DNA from: Chitinophaga pinensis | GTDB lineage: Bacteria > Bacteroidota > Bacteroidia > NS11-12g > UBA955 | Reading direction: 5' to 3' | NCBI GenBank assembly: GCA_945888525.1 | Contig: CAMDAF010000025.1 | Span: 1 to 38,121 of the forward strand | DNA: 38,121 nt | In this document: positions 10,200-18,144 of the stretch, piece after piece | How positions within the stretch are numbered: the stretch's first letter is position 1 | How the letters are laid out: every line of letters begins with the position of its first letter | Notes under the pieces: generated by a model | The model's database searches: none | What the model was told of the DNA's origin: nothing | The model's input: only the letters and a program-made list of their open reading frames with translations | Translations under genes and position numbers: made by a program

Positions 10200-10838
10200 A
10201 TGGCGGTCAAATTTAGTCCACTTAATGCTGGTTGGATTCTGGTCTTGGTTTATGCAGTTGGACTTGCCGGTTTTTTCTTTCCACAAACAAACGCCATAAT
10301 GAACCAATTGGTTTGGGTAAATTTGCTGTTTACACTAATTATTCTTTTGTTGTTTCATAAAAAATGGAATCAAGTCTTTGTCGCTTCAGTATTACTTATT
10401 GCTTGTATCGGTTTTTTGCTAGAGGTAGTGGGTGTAAAAACAGGGTATATATTTGGGTTTTATCAATATGGGCCAACCCTTGGTTTTAGTTATTGGGATA
10501 CGCCACTAATGATGATGGTAACATGGGTAACCACTATCTACACCACCAGGCAAGTGGCTGAAATGGTTTCTAAAGAACCGTTTTTAACGAGCACACTAGC
10601 TGCATTAATGATGGTTTTTTTGGATTTTTTCATTGAACCATTTGCTATTCGCCACCAATTGTGGACATGGAATTCTATAGAGGTACCTCTGCACAATTAC
10701 ATAGGTTGGTTTGTTTCAGGGCTGATTATACAATACTGTTTTATTAAATCTGTAAAGTTTTCAGTCAATAAATTGTCTTTGCCAGTTTACCTTATTCAAC
10801 TTGCGTTTTTTATCGCTTTGTTTCTTTTAAAGAAATAA
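10200..10838 (+). CDS. Carotenoid biosynthesis protein (DUF422/CruF-like)
   Basis: 212 residues with about seven hydrophobic helices, an inner-membrane protein. The conserved DUF422 patches are present: GFLLEVVGVKTGYIFG, YQYGPTLGFSYWDTPL, and DFFIEPFAIRHQLWTW followed by VPLHNYIGWF. In cyanobacteria and haloarchaea this family includes CruF and related hydratases that add water across the C-1',2' end of acyclic or monocyclic carotenoids. The substrate here is not known and no other carotenoid gene is in the window. It is the third gene after recF. Its last 43 bases overlap the convergent GT87-like gene tail to tail. Confidence 0.85.
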   Translation: MAVKFSPLNAGWILVLVYAVGLAGFFFPQTNAIMNQLVWVNLLFTLIILLLFHKKWNQVFVASVLLIACIGFLLEVVGVKTGYIFGFYQYGPTLGFSYWDTPLMMMVTWVTTIYTTRQVAEMVSKEPFLTSTLAALMMVFLDFFIEPFAIRHQLWTWNSIEVPLHNYIGWFVSGLIIQYCFIKSVKFSVNKLSLPVYLIQLAFFIALFLLKK

Positions 10839-12064: not shown

Positions 12065-12532
12065 ATGTCTATTCACATCGGAGATACCGCCCCAGATTTT
12101 ACTTTATTCAATACTGAAAAACAAGCCATCAGTTTGTCGTCTTACCATGGGAAAAATGTAGTGGTTTTATTTTTCCCCTTAGCCTTTACATCAACCTGTA
12201 CAGCTGAGTTGTGTGGCGTTCGAGATGACATTGGCAACTATGGGAAAATGGATGCAGAAGTTCTAGCAATATCTGTTGACTCTCTGTTCTCCTTGGGTAA
12301 ATTTAAAGAAGAGCAAAGCTTGAATTTTAACTTATTGAGCGACTTTAACAAAACAGCTTCACAGGCATACGATTCTTTGTATGATACTTTTGTCTTGGAG
12401 ATGAAAGGCGTTTCAAAACGTTCTGCATTTTTGATCGACCGCGAAGGTGTCATTCGATATGCAGAAGTTTTAGAAAGCGCTGGTGATGTTCCAAATTTGG
12501 ACGCACTTAAAGAGATTCTAAAAACTTTATAA
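12065..12532 (+). CDS. Peroxiredoxin, AhpC/TSA family (AhpE-like)
   Basis: 155 residues. Thiol peroxidase of the cytoplasm that reduces hydrogen peroxide and organic peroxides. The thioredoxin-like fold opens with GDTAPDFTLFN. The active-site stretch is FFPLAFTSTCTAELCGVRD, with the peroxidatic Cys45 in the T-x-x-C motif and a second cysteine at 50. The conserved Arg is in SKRSAFLIDREGVIRY. The short length and the absence of a C-terminal resolving Cys resemble AhpE-type enzymes. Cys50 might resolve within the same helix, but that is inference. It leads the nfeD-floA pair, 8 bases ahead of nfeD. Confidence 0.9.
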   Translation: MSIHIGDTAPDFTLFNTEKQAISLSSYHGKNVVVLFFPLAFTSTCTAELCGVRDDIGNYGKMDAEVLAISVDSLFSLGKFKEEQSLNFNLLSDFNKTASQAYDSLYDTFVLEMKGVSKRSAFLIDREGVIRYAEVLESAGDVPNLDALKEILKTL

Positions 12533-12540
12533 AATAAACT

Positions 12541-13002
12541 ATGGTTACTGCCATCATTGTCATTCTGATTTTACTTGGCTTGATTTTAATCTTGCTTGAG
12601 TTATTTGTTACACCTGGTTTCATTACCGGCTTATTGGGTGGGGTTGCATGGACCTACGCGGTCTATAAAATCTACAACGATTATGGAACAACCTCTGGCC
12701 ATTTGGCTCTTGGTGGGTTGATCCTTTTATTGATTGCCTGCATTTTTATCGCAGTAAAAAGTGGCGTTTGGGATAGGGTGTCTCTTCACCAGCAAATGGA
12801 CAGTAAAGTTAACCTTTTGCCAGATGTTAAAATAGGGGATACTGGCTCAACCCTTAGTGCCTTGCGCCCAAGCGGGAAAATGCAATGGAATCAAATTAGC
12901 ATTGAAGTGTGTACCATGGGCGAATTGGTTGAAACTGCTGCCTTCGTTGAAATTATAAAAATTGAAAACAATAAAATATACGTAAAACAAATTTCATTAT
13001 GA
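12541..13002 (+). CDS. NfeD-like membrane protein (short NfeD1b type)
   Basis: 153 residues. Two or three membrane helices fill residues about 1-80, and a small OB-fold domain (about 95-153, [20 protein letters not shown]) follows. This is the short NfeD form, without the ClpP-like protease domain. NfeD proteins are almost always encoded beside a flotillin/stomatin partner and are thought to act with it in membrane microdomains. The partner floA follows with a 4-base ATGA overlap. Confidence 0.88.
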
Positions 13003-13985
13003 ATATACTAGAAATACCTCCATTTTTTTTAGGCATAGGCGGTCTTATTATGATCGTCATCGTCTTTTTTATCTTCTTGTATTACGTGCCTCTAGGACTT
13101 TGGTTCTCGGCCATTCTATCTAAAGTTAAAATTTCATTGCTTGACTTGATTTTTATGCGTTGGCGGAAAGTGCCGCCAGAAATCATTGTCAAAGGCTTGG
13201 TTAATGCAACCAAAGCTGGCTTGGTCATTAACAGTGATATGTTAGAGGCCCACTATTTGGCAGGAGGCAATGTGATGAAAGTTGTTGCCGCATTGATTAG
13301 TGCGGATAAAGCAAACATCCCTCTTGATTTCAAAGCAGCAACAGCCATCGACCTTGCTGGTCGTGATGTGTTTGATGCGGTTCAAATGAGTGTTAACCCA
13401 CGCGTTATTGATACGCCTCCTGTTTCTGCTGTTGCAAAAGATGGCATCCAATTGATAGCAAAAGCCCGTGTGACGGTTCGTGCAAATATTGCGCAGTTGG
13501 TAGGTGGTGCTGGAGAAGAAACTGTTTTAGCCCGTGTTGGCGAAGGCATTATAACCACCATTGGTTCTGCGGCTAACCATAAAGAAGTTTTAGAAAATCC
13601 TGACCGCATTTCGAAAGGCGTGTTGGCAAAAGGTTTGGATGCTGGCACTGCATTTGAAATTTTATCAATAGACATTGCTGACATTGATATTGGAGAAAAT
13701 ATTGGCGCAAAATTGCAAATGGATCAAGCAGAAGCTGATAAAAACATTGCACAAGCCAAAGCAGAAGAGAGGCGCGCAATGGCCATTGCACTTGAACAAG
13801 AAATGAAAGCGAAAGCCCAAGAAGCCAGAGCAAAAGTGATTGAAGCCGAAGCTGAAATTCCGCGCTCGATAAGTGAAGCTTTTAGAAGTGGCAATTTGGG
13901 TATCATGGACTATTACCGCATGCAAAACATGAAGGCAGATACCGAAATGAGAGATGCTTTTGCTAAGCCACCTAAAAAAGACTAA
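12999..13985 (+). CDS. floA: Flotillin-like protein FloA
   Basis: 328 residues, the normal FloA (YqfA/UPF0365) length. An N-terminal hydrophobic hairpin (about 8-32) anchors it in the membrane. The SPFH domain follows ([20 protein letters not shown], then [16 protein letters not shown] and [11 protein letters not shown]). Then comes a charged Ala/Glu/Lys coiled coil ([39 protein letters not shown]) and a short tail. FloA forms membrane microdomains that scaffold other membrane proteins and affect fluidity. It is translationally coupled to nfeD and ends one base before the convergent ubiA stop. Its transcript would have to terminate inside ubiA (see 14028-14065). Confidence 0.95.
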
Positions 13986-14870
13986 TTATAGATTAGCAAA
14001 TAAATATAAAACATATTCGGCAAAGAAAAACAGCCAAAACCTTTTATAATAGGTTTTGGCTGTTTGTTTATTAAGCGTTTTTAAGCCCATTAAATTCAGG
14101 GCAAATAAAACCATTAATACAATATGGCCACTGAATAATATAAGGTAGCGTGAGGTGTTAAGAAGATCTACATATTTATAAATACTAAAAATATAAGCCA
14201 ACAGTATCAGCGTGTTTCCTGCAATAATTGTAAACTTTGGACTGTATAAAATAGCCAAGGATTTAATTTTAAATTGTTCGTCACCTTCCATATCTGGCAA
14301 ATCTTTAAACCATGCAATGACAATGCTAAATGCAACAATGAATACACTTAATACCATGATGTCTAACTCAAATGAATAGCGCTTGTTGATTAGGATATTA
14401 AAGACTAAGTAACCACCAATATTAACCATTAGACCTCTCACCAAGCTTATAGCCAAGGCCGCAGGTAAATGGTGTTTGCGCAGCGAAAAAGGCGGGCATG
14501 AATACGCCCAACCAATAAGCATTGAAATGCTAACTATCAGAAGAAGTATAGGGCTTAGGTATAAAGCCATTAATGCACTTAATACCATGCTCGAATAAAC
14601 AATTGCTTTGGCTGTATTGATGCTTATTTCTCCTGATGCCAATGGCAAATAGGGTTTGTTTATTTTGTCCAATTCTATATCAACAATTTGATTAATGCCG
14701 ACTATAAAAATATTGCAAGTCAAACCCGTGAGTATGGCTAAAAATAAAATTGAAAGATGTTCAAGTTCTGAATGCTGGCAAACCATTGCATATAAAGCTG
14801 CAATGCTTATGCAGGTTCCAATGATGGTGTGAGGTCGACTGAATTTTATGAACGAATTAATTGCTTTCAT
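13986..14870 (-). CDS. UbiA-family prenyltransferase, homogentisate prenyltransferase-like
   Basis: 294 residues with eight or nine membrane helices. The first Asp-rich motif is NQIVDIELDKINKPYLPLAS (residues 60-79) and the second is KDLPDMEGDEQFKIKSLA (189-206). These resemble homogentisate phytyl/geranylgeranyl/solanesyl transferases and chlorophyll synthases more than MenA or UbiA proper. The enzyme should transfer a prenyl diphosphate to an aromatic or tetrapyrrole-like acceptor in the membrane. The real acceptor is unknown. It overlaps the methyltransferase-like gene by 14 bases and is the last of four minus-strand genes. Its final codons contain a perfect terminator-like hairpin. Confidence 0.85.
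   Translation of the reverse strand: MKAINSFIKFSRPHTIIGTCISIAALYAMVCQHSELEHLSILFLAILTGLTCNIFIVGINQIVDIELDKINKPYLPLASGEISINTAKAIVYSSMVLSALMALYLSPILLLIVSISMLIGWAYSCPPFSLRKHHLPAALAISLVRGLMVNIGGYLVFNILINKRYSFELDIMVLSVFIVAFSIVIAWFKDLPDMEGDEQFKIKSLAILYSPKFTIIAGNTLILLAYIFSIYKYVDLLNTSRYLILFSGHIVLMVLFALNLMGLKTLNKQTAKTYYKRFWLFFFAEYVLYLFANL
14028..14065 (+). terminator. Terminator-like hairpin embedded in the ubiA 3' coding end
   Basis: A perfect 15-bp inverted repeat (AAACAGCCAAAACCT / AGGTTTTGGCTGTTT) with an 8-base loop, about 43 bases past the floA stop and wholly inside the ubiA frame. On the plus strand it is followed by GTTTATT, suiting floA termination. On the minus strand it is followed by TTTTTCTTT, so it could also act on ubiA mRNA. 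I place it on plus because floA otherwise has no terminator. Confidence 0.7.
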
Positions 14871-15564
14871 CGATTTGTATAACTAAAAGTGGCGCCAAGA
14901 AATGCTTGATTTCAAAAACATTTAACCCACTTAATTTCAATGTTTTTTGATATTGTTTTACGGTTTTAGATTTTAGAACAGAAATGATTCCATCAATGCT
15001 TATGGTTAAAATATTAACAGGGATGATGTATGTAAATAAAATTCTTTTCCAGGAAAAGGGTTTTATAAAAGGGCTTAAAATCAGTACGCCAACAGTAGTG
15101 GCAATAAGGGTTTTTAATAGGTGCAAGAAACTTGGAAACAATATTTCTACAAAATAAGCACTTGCATTTGCTTCTCTTATTTTAAAACAAATAGTTCTTT
15201 GCTCATCTTCACTAAAATGGTGAAAGGCATTGAACATTGTGTAGGTTTTACCCGCTTCAAAATCCATGTTCAAAACATCTTTGCTTTCTTTGATATACTC
15301 AACATCAGGGTATTCTGAACCGAAAGCATAAGGGAATTTGTCTGATAAACTTAGATGCTTAAAATTTTTAGATTGCCGGTAAATACTTAAGGCAGGCTGG
15401 CCACAACCAGAACACAAATCGTACATTAGGCCAGCTTTCTTTTCTTGAAAGATTTTGATAAATGGGCCGTAAATGTTAAAACGCGATACCACAAAACCAA
15501 TGAATTCGGTCTGAAAGTTTCTCAATGTATCGGGAAACCAACTTTGGTCTTCGAGTTCTTTCAT
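14857..15564 (-). CDS. SAM methyltransferase-like protein with hydrophobic C-terminal part
   Basis: 235 residues. A glycine-rich motif I (MYDLCSGCGQPALSIYR, about 48-64) and acidic residues after strand 2 (LSLSDKFPYAF) fit a class I SAM-dependent methyltransferase. Then comes MFNAFHHFSEDEQRTIC, a common post-motif II stretch. The last third is unusual: two hydrophobic segments (LLKTLIATTVGVLILSPFI and ILFTYIIPVNILTISIDGII) suggest a membrane-associated enzyme acting on a lipid substrate. The gene starts 5 bases after the AAA gene stop and overlaps ubiA. I infer a shared pathway with the prenyltransferase, perhaps methylation of the prenylated product. The substrate is unknown. Confidence 0.7.
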   Translation of the reverse strand: MKELEDQSWFPDTLRNFQTEFIGFVVSRFNIYGPFIKIFQEKKAGLMYDLCSGCGQPALSIYRQSKNFKHLSLSDKFPYAFGSEYPDVEYIKESKDVLNMDFEAGKTYTMFNAFHHFSEDEQRTICFKIREANASAYFVEILFPSFLHLLKTLIATTVGVLILSPFIKPFSWKRILFTYIIPVNILTISIDGIISVLKSKTVKQYQKTLKLSGLNVFEIKHFLAPLLVIQIDESN

Positions 15565-15569
15565 TTACA

Positions 15570-17045
15570 TTATTCTGAGAAGCCAGAGAATACACTGCCG
15601 AATAGATCTCTAAAGCTAATGGATTTCTCTAAAAGGTGTTTGCTTAACTTGCTGTTTTCGCTCAATCCAAACAGTACCAATTCCATCATTAAAAGCTTAT
15701 CATTTGCCTTGGCTAGTGGGAAATGTGTATCTACAAATATCTTGAGCGCGGGAATTGATTCCAAGGTTTTTTGGTGTATTTTGTTCTTGCTCATATTCGC
15801 CAAATCAATATGTTGGCCTTCATCAAACCAAGCCGTAATGTCTTGGTAATGGTTTATGCCATCGCGCGATTTTTTACTTGCTTTTTCGAGTGGAGGGCAG
15901 GTTTCCAAAAAGACGGTTTTAATGGCTTTACCCAAAAGATTTTGAGCCACTTTTAGAGGACCTTCTTGTTCACCTTCATACACCATTTCTACTTTTCCTG
16001 TAATGGCTGGAATTATTCCTTGCAAATCAGAAATTCTCACTTCTGTGGTTTTGTCGCCACTCAAAAAGGCACGTCTTTCAGCGGCGCTTACCGCATTTTC
16101 GTATGCTGAAATACTTAGTCTTGCTGATACACCACTTTTAGCATCCACATATTCGCTGTTTCGCGCTTCAAAAACCACCTGCTCTATGATATTTTCTATT
16201 AACAAAGGAACATGCACCATGGCAATTTGTTCTGGTTTAAGTTTTGCTTCTTGCCTGGTTATATCCCGCGCAATGTCAATTGATTTGGGATAGTGCGTAA
16301 TAATTTGACTGCCTATCCTGTCCTTTAGCGGCGTTACAATGCTTCCTCTGTTGGTGTAGTCTTCTGGATTGGCGGTAAACACAAATTGAATATCTAAGGG
16401 CAAACGCAATTTGAATCCACGGATTTGTATGTCGCCTTCTTGCAATATATTAAATAATGCTACTTGTATTCTAGCCTGTAAATCAGGCAATTCATTGATT
16501 ACAAAAATGCAGCGGTTGCTGCGAGGAATCAACCCAAAGTGTATGGCCTTTTCATCCGAATAACTTAGCTTTTGGTTAATGGCTTTAACAGGATCTAAAT
16601 CGCCTATTAAATCGGCAACCGAAACATCAGGGGTTGCGAGTTTCTCTACATAACGCTCACCGCGGTGTAGCCACGAAATAGGGGTTTTATCACCGAGCTC
16701 TTTTATAAGTTCCTTAGAGAAATTTGAAATGGGGTTTAGTGGGTCGTCATTGATCTCACTGCCTGTAATATAAGGGATGTATTCGTCAAGCAAATTGACC
16801 ATTTGCCTTGCAATTTTTGTTTTCGCTTGTCCTCTTAATCCCAACATATTGATGCTATGTCCCGATAAAATTGCCCTTTCAATGTCAGGAATTACGGTGT
16901 CTTCATATCCCAATATTCCGGTGAATATCGCTTCACCTGACTGTAGCTTATTGATTAAATTTCTACGCAGTTCGTTTTTGATGCTCTCGCTTTTATAGCC
17001 ACTTTTCTTTAGTGCGCCAATTGTGTTTATATTCTCTGTATTCAT
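15570..17045 (-). CDS. MoxR/magnesium-chelatase-I-like AAA+ ATPase
   Basis: About 491 residues from the ATG at 17045, 7 bases past the upstream stop. An ATG at 17102 would overlap that gene by 50 bases and is less likely. Walker A is GLRGQAKT (69-76), Walker B CIFVINELPD (179-188) with Asn before the catalytic Glu, sensor 1 FTANPEDYTNRG (223-234), and LKDRIG nearby may carry an arginine finger. It resembles the COG1239-type ATPases annotated as magnesium chelatase in non-photosynthetic bacteria (for example the Rv0958 type). Members pair with a VWA protein, here the gene just upstream. Such pairs are thought to remodel or activate client proteins or insert metals. The client is unknown. Confidence 0.85.
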   Translation of the reverse strand: MNTENINTIGALKKSGYKSESIKNELRRNLINKLQSGEAIFTGILGYEDTVIPDIERAILSGHSINMLGLRGQAKTKIARQMVNLLDEYIPYITGSEINDDPLNPISNFSKELIKELGDKTPISWLHRGERYVEKLATPDVSVADLIGDLDPVKAINQKLSYSDEKAIHFGLIPRSNRCIFVINELPDLQARIQVALFNILQEGDIQIRGFKLRLPLDIQFVFTANPEDYTNRGSIVTPLKDRIGSQIITHYPKSIDIARDITRQEAKLKPEQIAMVHVPLLIENIIEQVVFEARNSEYVDAKSGVSARLSISAYENAVSAAERRAFLSGDKTTEVRISDLQGIIPAITGKVEMVYEGEQEGPLKVAQNLLGKAIKTVFLETCPPLEKASKKSRDGINHYQDITAWFDEGQHIDLANMSKNKIHQKTLESIPALKIFVDTHFPLAKANDKLLMMELVLFGLSENSKLSKHLLEKSISFRDLFGSVFSGFSE

Positions 17046-17052
17046 TCTGTTT

Positions 17053-18144
17053 CTAAATGTGCTTTCGCTTGTTGTTTTCAAAGTCTCTAAATATGTATTC
17101 ACCTAATCCGTGCAAGCTTGTGTAAAAAGCTTTTCCTTTGTTGGTTTCTGTAAATTCTTCTACGAAGTTCTGCAGATAAGGATCTTGCGCAATCATAAAA
17201 GTAGTTATCGGTATTTTTAATCGTCTGCAAATGGCTGCTTCATTCAAAGTTTTGTTCACAATTTTTCTATCCAATCCGAAACTATTCATATAGTATCCGC
17301 CATTTTCTTTTAGACAACTTGGTTTACCATCTGTTATCATAAAAATTTGTTTGTTTTTGTTTTTTCTTCTACGCAAAATGTCTTGGGCAAGTTGAAGTCC
17401 TGCTACCGTATTGGTATGGAACGGACCGACTTTCAAATAGGGGAGTTCTTTGATGTCAATTTGCCAAGCATCGTCGCCAAAAACTAAAATATCTAAGGTG
17501 TCTTTAGGGTATTTTATTTTGATCAATTCAGCCAAGGCCATAGCCACTTTTTTGGCTGGTGTTATACGGTCTTCTCCATATAAGATCATTGAATGAGAAA
17601 TGTCAATCATCAACACTGTGCTCGACTGCGACTTGAATTCTTTTTCGTTGATAATGAAATCGTCTTCCTTCATAATGCCTTGCGCATCGAGCATAATACT
17701 GTGGGCATTGCGCAAAGACTCTGTCATTGCAATTTGAGAAAGATCGTCGCCAAACTGAAAATTTCTTTGTTCTGCAGAGTATTCGTCGCCATTGCCGGTA
17801 AAGTTGCTTTGGTGTTCTCCTTTGCCTGATTTTTTAATTTGTCCAAATATTTCTTCCAAAGCACTTTTACGTATGCTTTGCTCCATTTTAGAACTCATCT
17901 CAAAAGACCCATTTTGAGTATTGTCTTTGATGTACCCTTTGTTTCTTAAATCTTGAATAAAATCACCCATTCCATAGGCATTATCTGTTATATGGTGTTC
18001 ACGGTCGATTTCATTCATCCAGTCTATCGCGTCTGCAACATCACCAGAAGTATAAACCAGTATTTCCTTAAAAATGCGGAGTAATTTTTCGAATGGATCT
18101 TGATTGGCTTCTTCTTCTTGTTTTTGAAATCTATATCCGATCAT
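17053..18144 (-). CDS. VWA-domain protein, partner of the AAA+ ATPase
   Basis: 363 residues, no signal peptide, so cytoplasmic. The N-terminal half (1-170) is helical and charged. The C-terminal half is a von Willebrand factor A domain with a complete metal-ion-dependent adhesion site: DISHS at 181-185, Thr in FHTNTVAGL near 244-246, and Asp in MITDGKPS near 272. It is followed 7 bases later by the AAA gene, matching the conserved Rv0958/Rv0959-like pair and the ChlI/ChlD logic, in which the VWA partner binds the AAA ring. It heads a four-gene run with the methyltransferase-like and UbiA genes. It is divergent from aspS, and no clear promoter could be read. Confidence 0.87.
   Translation of the reverse strand: MIGYRFQKQEEEANQDPFEKLLRIFKEILVYTSGDVADAIDWMNEIDREHHITDNAYGMGDFIQDLRNKGYIKDNTQNGSFEMSSKMEQSIRKSALEEIFGQIKKSGKGEHQSNFTGNGDEYSAEQRNFQFGDDLSQIAMTESLRNAHSIMLDAQGIMKEDDFIINEKEFKSQSSTVLMIDISHSMILYGEDRITPAKKVAMALAELIKIKYPKDTLDILVFGDDAWQIDIKELPYLKVGPFHTNTVAGLQLAQDILRRRKNKNKQIFMITDGKPSCLKENGGYYMNSFGLDRKIVNKTLNEAAICRRLKIPITTFMIAQDPYLQNFVEEFTETNKGKAFYTSLHGLGEYIFRDFENNKRKHI

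What the first reader, a model, noticed from the sequence alone, without database searches (positions are those of the whole stretch)
13986..18144. VWA, MoxR/ChlI-like AAA, methyltransferase-like and HPT-type UbiA genes in one tight run
Seen: four minus-strand genes with gaps of 7 and 5 bases and a 14-base overlap, so almost certainly one transcript. Known: AAA+VWA pairs of this kind resemble the I and D subunits of magnesium chelatase, and UbiA members with NQxxDxxxDKINKP and KDLPDMEGD motifs include homogentisate prenyltransferases and chlorophyll synthases. Inference: the AAA/VWA pair may remodel or metallate an enzyme acting with a membrane methyltransferase and a prenyltransferase to make an unnamed prenylated aromatic lipid or quinone in a non-phototroph. 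This could be an undescribed pathway or activation system.
Basis: partly seen in the sequence, partly recalled or inferred. Interest (0 to 1): 0.68.

Follow-up and report, generated by a model that had tools for sequence, protein, structure and literature searches.

The report
Homogentisate prenyltransferase–methyltransferase pair in a non-phototroph
A bacterium with no sign of chlorophyll-making machinery carries what looks like the key enzyme of plant vitamin E and plastoquinone synthesis next to a membrane methyltransferase, and in its relatives that enzyme's gene usually sits beside genes that look able to recycle the phytol tail of chlorophyll, so lipids of this type may be made well beyond phototrophs.

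Summary
The four genes are real and spaced as stated, but they are two modules. The VWA–AAA pair occurs widely without the others: AAA is in 22 of 37 genomes that lack the UbiA. One congener (G012) keeps aspS–VWA–AAA–floA with the other two genes missing. No CobN/BchH subunit was found in 59 of 59 genomes, which speaks against a metal chelatase.

The other two genes are the find. The UbiA protein passes NCBIfam's homogentisate phytyltransferase (HPT) model (262 vs 226 bits; 11 of 11 orthologues tested pass). Over-cut-off matches are rare in the phylum (2 of 395 genomes, one being the window's own), but the gene is in 46 of 108 genomes of the order. The methyltransferase lies beside it in 18 of 22 HPT genomes. 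In 28 of 36 loci with an uncut upstream flank, (MT–)HPT faces a divergent DUF92 gene (family of plant phytyl-phosphate kinase VTE6; mapping partly recalled), in 20 of 28 fused to a prenol-kinase-like domain.

Best reading: homogentisate plus a C20 prenyl diphosphate gives a methylated prenyl-benzoquinol, in relatives perhaps from salvaged phytol. The window's genome lacks DUF92 and no tocopherol cyclase was found, so the product is open.

The parts
13986..14870 (-). UbiA-family prenyltransferase of the homogentisate phytyltransferase (HPT) model
   Evidence: NCBIfam NF009525 262.3 bits, cut-off 226; next model 93.8 with cut-off 269; UbiA fold by Foldseek against 7bpu/6m31
14652..14693 (-). first Asp-rich motif NQIVDIELDKINKP (residues 60-73)
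   Evidence: N60, Q61, D64, D68 and I70-P73 invariant in 21 of 21 aligned orthologues
14280..14306 (-). second Asp-rich motif KDLPDMEGD (residues 189-197)
   Evidence: K189, D190, P192, D193, G196, D197 invariant in 21 of 21
14857..15564 (-). class I SAM methyltransferase with C-terminal hydrophobic hairpin (residues about 146-198); overlaps the UbiA gene by 14 bases
   Evidence: fold; the hairpin is modelled with low confidence; hydropathy; directly upstream of HPT in 20 of 42 loci of relatives
15570..17045 (-). MoxR/ChlI-like AAA+ ATPase (ATG start); separate module
   Evidence: PF07728; present in 40 of 59 genomes, own included
17053..18144 (-). VWA-domain protein with DxSxS motif; partner of the AAA
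   Evidence: PF13519; next to AAA in 24 of 30 loci
12999..13985 (+). floA (flotillin-like); context gene that marks the empty site in G012
   Evidence: PF12127; next to AAA in L154, 139 bases apart
12065..12532 (+). peroxiredoxin; context gene, directly next to HPT in five congeners
   Evidence: PF00578; L038, L039, L041-L043

Best explanation
The run joins two independent modules. The core of interest is a two-gene prenyl-lipid unit. HPT condenses homogentisate (from 4-hydroxyphenylpyruvate by HPPD) with a C20 prenyl diphosphate, with decarboxylation, to give a methyl-prenyl-benzoquinol in the membrane. The membrane-associated methyltransferase then methylates this ring, doing the job of plant or cyanobacterial MPBQ methyltransferase without being a detectable member of a curated quinone-methyltransferase family. 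The likely product is an open-chain methylated prenyl-benzoquinol (plastoquinone/tocopherol-precursor type), an antioxidant or accessory redox lipid made besides menaquinone. Ancestrally the unit was fed by a divergently transcribed prenol-kinase–DUF92 (VTE5–VTE6-like) protein that turns scavenged phytol or another prenol into the diphosphate. The window lineage has lost that gene and presumably uses de novo geranylgeranyl diphosphate. The AAA–VWA pair is a MoxR/ChlID-like chaperone with another, unknown client that became an operon neighbour in one clade. Shown: UbiA passes the HPT model, HPPD is present, MT–HPT linkage, DUF92 linkage in relatives, no chelatase large subunit found. Inferred: substrates, methylation site, product, role, operon, evolutionary order.
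For: HPT model over curated cut-off in 11 of 11 tested orthologues, other models far below theirs; a quick tree separates 43 HPTs from six Bacteroidota paralogues, DGGGPS and ChlG (SH-aLRT 99, long branches). Two HPPDs over cut-off in the window's genome; 56 of 59 genomes over cut-off. MT in 18 of 22 HPT genomes, always next to HPT, and in 3 of 37 others, p 1e-8 without correction for kinship. DUF92 divergent and adjacent in 28 of 36 uncut loci of 42; among 59 genomes 11 of 14 with DUF92 are HPT+ (p 0.0004), adjacent in all 11. VTE5 as phytol kinase and VTE6/COG1836 as phytyl-phosphate kinase: passages of PMC9782597. The prenol-kinase clamp Arg29-Lys30-His33 of a model in PMC10849223 matches RKxxH, invariant in 4 of 4 aligned fused N-terminal domains. 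Empty site in G012. BchH/CobN 0 of 59. MenA over cut-off in 52 of 59, own included.
Against: The window's own genome has no DUF92 match and no geranylgeranyl reductase over cut-off, so a phytyl tail is unlikely there. No tocopherol cyclase in 59 of 59, though no control genome rang over cut-off. The MT matches no quinone-methyltransferase model, and three divergent homologues occur away from HPT. HPT loci of genera g5/g6 lack the MT, and four such genomes had no MT match at all. Three of 14 DUF92 genomes have no HPT. HPPD is near universal, so it is no specific support. The DUF92 proteins tested score below the TIGR00297 cut-off (69-91 vs 205.85). The prenol-kinase-like domain has no Pfam match over cut-off, no NCBIfam and no PDB match, only motifs, and the clamp is itself a modelling result. 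No characterised HPT was available for the tree. Donor and acceptor cannot be read from sequence.
Confidence: 0.6

Rival explanations
1. All four genes act together: AAA/VWA remodels or metallates an enzyme of a prenyl-lipid pathway formed with MT and UbiA.
For: Tight spacing, AAA-MT 2-6 bases in four congeners besides the window.
Against: AAA in 22 of 37 HPT-negative genomes, unmatched in 4 of 22 HPT-positive ones, p 0.09; empty site in G012 with VWA-AAA retained; DUF92 stands between the pairs in G013; no CobN/BchH in 59 of 59.
Confidence: 0.1
2. The UbiA is HPT-like in sequence but uses another aromatic or polar acceptor, and the MT finishes an unrelated lipid; the product is not a homogentisate-derived quinol.
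For: HPT models rest mostly on cyanobacterial and plant members (recalled); apart from close congeners the orthologues are 36-59% identical to the window's; MT resembles small-molecule O-methyltransferases in the fold search.
Against: Large margin over the other UbiA models; HPPD present; linkage to DUF92 genes fits HPT.
Confidence: 0.22
3. The unit makes a respiratory quinone that replaces menaquinone.
For: Three HPT genomes show no MenA match: G003 (82% complete), G032 and G033.
Against: MenA over cut-off in 19 of 22 HPT genomes, own genome included.
Confidence: 0.08

Closest known systems
Plant/cyanobacterial tocopherol pathway (HPPD, HPT/VTE2, VTE3, VTE1, VTE5, VTE6)
   Same: HPT passes the curated model; HPPD present; DUF92 (VTE6 family) and a VTE5-like motif domain lie beside HPT in relatives; a membrane-associated methyltransferase precedes HPT
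   Different: No cyclase found; methyltransferase matches no curated quinone-methyltransferase model; host is a Bacteroidota without detectable BchH; kinase domains fused and divergently transcribed; window species lacks DUF92
Plastoquinone pathway (HST plus VTE3)
   Same: Homogentisate as likely acceptor; open-chain methylated quinol as likely product
   Different: Matches the phytyltransferase model (a solanesyltransferase model was not among the hits); non-phototroph; probably additional to menaquinone
Tocopherol synthesis reported for Leishmania promastigotes (PMC6443866; title and abstract start only)
   Same: A tocopherol-type pathway claimed for a non-photosynthetic organism
   Different: A eukaryote; genes not compared here
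Methyl-plastoquinone pathway of some non-phototrophic bacteria (recalled, not found in the paper library)
   Same: Homogentisate-type quinone outside phototrophs
   Different: No link to prenol-salvage kinases known to me; not compared here
MoxR/VWA and Mg-chelatase I/D pairs
   Same: AAA plus VWA, adjacent genes
   Different: Far below chelatase equivalog cut-offs (28.2 vs 499.55 bits) and no large chelatase subunit found

Membership tests
Homogentisate phytyltransferase (NF009525) | score over curated cut-off | tested here: met
   262.3 vs 226; 10 of 10 further orthologues 255.7-312.5
Homogentisate phytyltransferase (NF009525) | two Asp-rich motifs and UbiA fold | tested here: met
   invariant motifs in 21 of 21; model pLDDT 78.5, best PDB matches are DGGGPS and UbiA structures
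Homogentisate phytyltransferase (NF009525) | clusters with characterised HPT/HST in a tree | not tested
   no characterised HPT sequence at hand; only separation from paralogues, DGGGPS and ChlG shown
Homogentisate phytyltransferase (NF009525) | activity on homogentisate and prenyl diphosphate | not testable with these tools
   needs an enzyme assay
Tocopherol biosynthesis | HPPD supplying homogentisate | tested here: met
   two copies over cut-off in G000
Tocopherol biosynthesis | tocopherol cyclase PF14249 | tested here: not met
   0 of 59 genomes; no control genome over cut-off, so the negative is weak
Tocopherol biosynthesis | phytol kinase and phytyl-phosphate kinase | tested here: not met
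   DUF92 absent from G000; the first kinase was not searched on its own; in the order DUF92 lies beside HPT in 28 of 36 uncut loci
MPBQ methyltransferase (VTE3 or UbiE type) | match to a quinone-methyltransferase model | tested here: not met
   no NCBIfam hit for the window's MT; 3 of 8 aligned members weakly match generic Methyltransf_25
Class I SAM methyltransferase | Rossmann-like fold and glycine-rich SAM motif | tested here: met
   345 PDB chains at E <= 0.001; nearly all of the 50 listed are named methyltransferases or SAM-dependent enzymes; DLCxGxGxP invariant in 8 of 8
Magnesium/cobalt chelatase | large subunit BchH/CobN | tested here: not met
   0 of 59; 5 of 14 control genomes ring over cut-off
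Magnesium/cobalt chelatase | I/D subunits over curated cut-off | tested here: not met
   AAA 28.2 vs 499.55 and VWA 24.9 vs 779.45 bits
Prenol/phytol kinase (N-terminal domain of DUF92 fusions in relatives) | RKxxH clamp proposed for PfPolK in PMC10849223 | tested here: met
   R36, K37, H40 invariant in 4 of 4; a profile of those four finds the domain in 20 of 28 HPT-linked DUF92 proteins, three of them model rows; the other 8 are L038-L043, L051 and L235, of which L038 and L041 are cut by contig ends
Prenol/phytol kinase (N-terminal domain of DUF92 fusions in relatives) | match to a family model or solved structure | tested here: not met
   no Pfam over cut-off (best EbsA 20.8 vs 25.9), no NCBIfam, no PDB match up to E 10

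The most novel reading that the evidence does not exclude
Non-phototrophic Bacteroidota scavenge phytol released from algal or cyanobacterial chlorophyll, activate it with a fused phytol-kinase–phytyl-phosphate-kinase, and join it to homogentisate to make a vitamin E/plastoquinone-type membrane lipid; the window lineage is a descendant that dropped the salvage kinases and feeds the same enzyme with its own geranylgeranyl diphosphate.
Probability: 0.4. Interest if true: 0.8.

Novelty: new variant of a known kind. Interest (0 to 1): 0.6.

Why it matters
Two reviews state that tocochromanols/vitamin E are made only by photosynthetic organisms (abstract starts of PMC5745509 and PMC9515888); a listed paper reports tocopherol synthesis in Leishmania (PMC6443866), so the rule already has a claimed exception among protists. 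A homogentisate prenyltransferase locus with prenol-salvage kinases in an order of Bacteroidota without detectable BchH would bring this chemistry into heterotrophic bacteria and suggest a chlorophyll-to-antioxidant route. It would also offer natural fused prenol-kinase/DUF92 proteins, a class with few characterised enzymes (PMC9782597 passages), and a candidate new family of membrane quinol methyltransferase. It is testable by lipidomics and by expression in E. coli.

Tried and rejected
Rejected: AAA/VWA as a chelatase; a four-gene pathway; HPT as a menaquinone replacement; a second HPPD copy as an HPT-specific enzyme. Two HPPD groups exist by identity to one query (66-69% vs 71-84%). In L100 and L103 the second group sits with tryptophan-dioxygenase, 3-hydroxyanthranilate-dioxygenase and HgmA-like genes, and it also occurs in HPT-negative G002 (L112), so I did not use it. 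DUF92 without HPT (G016, G024, G028) lies in other contexts, in G016 after phytoene-synthase-type and amine-oxidase-type genes, so DUF92 is not exclusive to HPT. I wondered whether a 237-aa gene next to DUF92 in L051 and L235 was a split-off prenol kinase; in L051 it is a TP_methylase, and the L235 copy is nearly identical.

Led nowhere: paper searches; no paper held all terms; no listed title concerns such a route in Bacteroidota, but 54, 78 and 81 listed only 10-12 of 19-44 papers. Passages were read in PMC9782597, PMC10849223 and PMC6832408; every other paper was seen as search listing only. PDB and NCBIfam gave nothing, and Pfam nothing over cut-off, for the prenol-kinase-like domain.

Counts: the 59-genome set includes the window's own genome G000. 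UbiA matches weaker than E 1e-40 (eight genomes have only such matches) were taken as other UbiA paralogues and dropped. The 42 loci are 21 of the 22 HPT genomes (all but the window), G236, and 20 of the 24 further HPT genomes; G485, G486, G488 and G490, with split or partial matches, were not fetched. Six loci are cut by a contig end upstream (L045, L046, L048, L236, L237, L239) and were left out of the 36.

Full report
What is there. Four minus-strand genes run VWA, AAA, MT, UbiA from 18144 to 13986 with gaps of 7 and 5 bases and a 14-base overlap (AAA read from the ATG at 17045). The run ends at 13986, directly against the convergent floA gene that ends at 13985. The window is a whole contig of a 63-contig, 2.42-Mb genome. 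The seven named relatives that a search of species genomes returned are metagenome-assembled Bacteroidia/Bacteroidetes, two of them titled Chitinophaga pinensis and one from a pond sample. Against two congeners UbiA and MT show dN/dS of about 0.07-0.12.

Two modules, not one. I searched 59 genomes (the window's own plus 58 relatives) for each part. Strong matches to the UbiA are in 22, to the AAA in 40, to the MT in 21. MT and UbiA go together: 18 of 22 versus 3 of 37, Fisher p 1e-8. AAA and UbiA do not significantly: 18 of 22 versus 22 of 37, p 0.09. Related genomes are not independent, so these p values only rank the links. Neighbourhoods say the same. Of the 18 HPT genomes with AAA, AAA adjoins MT in five (G000, G003, G009, G010, G015); in G013 the order is VWA-AAA-DUF92(divergent)-MT-UbiA; in the other twelve AAA is on another contig. 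VWA adjoins AAA in 24 of 30 AAA loci looked at. In G012, a congener without MT and UbiA, the same syntenic block reads aspS-VWA-AAA-floA-nfeD-peroxiredoxin, with MT and UbiA missing between AAA and floA (aspS by Pfam; nfeD only by sub-cut-off matches). The large chelatase subunit BchH/CobN was found in 0 of 59 genomes while five of 14 control genomes ring. The AAA/VWA pair is therefore unlikely to be a metal chelatase. Its ordinary reading is a MoxR/ChlID-like AAA-VWA chaperone with unknown client.

The prenyltransferase. The UbiA passes NCBIfam's homogentisate phytyltransferase model (262.3 bits, cut-off 226), with the next model at 93.8 against a cut-off of 269. Ten further orthologues, nine from six genera of this order and one (G236) from another family of the class, also pass (255.7-312.5). 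Both Asp-rich motifs are invariant in 21 of 21, and the model fits UbiA-fold structures. A quick tree sets 43 HPTs apart from six Bacteroidota paralogues, DGGGPS and ChlG; several branches are long and no characterised HPT could be added. In a spread of 395 phylum genomes only two exceed the cut-off, the window's own and G236, but 46 of 108 genomes of the order carry the gene at E 1e-30 or better. I infer a rare acquisition that became common in this order.

The methyltransferase. It has no curated family. Its model (mean pLDDT 75.4, lowest in the hairpin) is a class I SAM methyltransferase with a hydrophobic hairpin near residues 146-198, as expected for a membrane substrate. In 42 HPT loci of relatives it lies directly upstream of HPT in 20, in genera g1, g2, g8 and g16; the 19 uncut loci of g5 and g6 lack it. 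Three divergent relatives lie elsewhere without HPT.

The third partner, seen only in relatives. In 28 of the 42 loci, and in 28 of the 36 not cut by a contig end upstream, the gene divergent from (MT-)HPT encodes DUF92. DUF92 is the family of plant VTE6, phytyl-phosphate kinase (the DUF92 to COG1836 mapping is recalled; VTE6 to COG1836 is from PMC9782597). In 20 of 28, all in genera g2, g5, g6 and g8, it is fused to an N-terminal membrane domain found by a profile built from four such domains, three of them among these 28. That domain carries RKxxH, the clamp proposed from a model of a prenol kinase of the VTE5/FOLK group (PMC10849223; domain). So the gene beside HPT would turn a prenol into its diphosphate in two steps. 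Since BchH was found in none of 59 genomes, phytol would have to come from outside. In the window's genus DUF92 stands alone without the first kinase domain in the four uncut copies (L039, L040, L042, L043), and in the window's own sub-clade (G000, G003, G009, G010, G015) it was not found. A geranylgeranyl reductase over cut-off was found in no genome of that genus but is present in the HPT+ genomes of g16. Order of loss is inference.

Mechanism. HPPD (two copies in G000) makes homogentisate; HPT prenylates it; MT methylates the product. MenA is over cut-off in 19 of 22 HPT genomes, so I favour an antioxidant or accessory redox lipid over a main respiratory quinone. No tocopherol cyclase was found (weak negative), so the open-chain quinol is the best guess. 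Substrates, product and role are inferred.

Known or new. Each enzyme family is known; the combination and host did not appear in the papers that my searches listed (several with capped lists). Two reviews hold that tocochromanols come from phototrophs only (abstract starts); a paper on Leishmania claims an exception (listing). A methyl-plastoquinone route in non-phototrophic bacteria is recalled but was not found in the library. I therefore rate it a new variant of a known kind.

Noticed in passing
G236:C1:896040-896891 (L150 9541-10401): The best-scoring HPT of the phylum scan (313 bits) stands without MT, DUF92 or AAA within the five genes looked at on either side, in another family of the class.
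   Followed up: partly
L100 1-3249, L103 4129-7195: A second HPPD group sits with kynurenine-pathway-type genes (tryptophan dioxygenase in L100, 3-hydroxyanthranilate dioxygenase in L103) and, in L100, an HgmA-like cupin protein, an unusual company for HPPD.
   Followed up: partly
L153 6617-10253: DUF92 in congener G016 follows a squalene/phytoene synthase and an amine-oxidase-type (desaturase-like) gene, suggesting a second use of prenol salvage near carotenoid genes.
   Followed up: no
window 10200-10838: CruF-like carotenoid biosynthesis membrane protein (PF04240), conserved in the syntenic block of several congeners.
   Followed up: no
window 16482-16505 (AAA, Walker B region): The AAA protein reads FVINELPD where ChlI/MoxR proteins have an Asp-Glu pair (recalled), so its Walker B looks atypical.
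   Followed up: no
L179 8541-10722, L180 9022-11201: Divergent homologues of the MT in genus g10 lie between an AraC-type regulator and a DinB-family protein (Pfam on L179), a different context without HPT.
   Followed up: partly
G485, G486, G488, G490: HPT matches split into two pieces, possible frameshifts or assembly errors.
   Followed up: no
L038, L039, L041, L043 (c8): An HgmA_N-like 385-aa protein (PF20510 in L043) lies just beyond the peroxiredoxin next to HPT in these congeners (in L038 with one ORF between).
   Followed up: no
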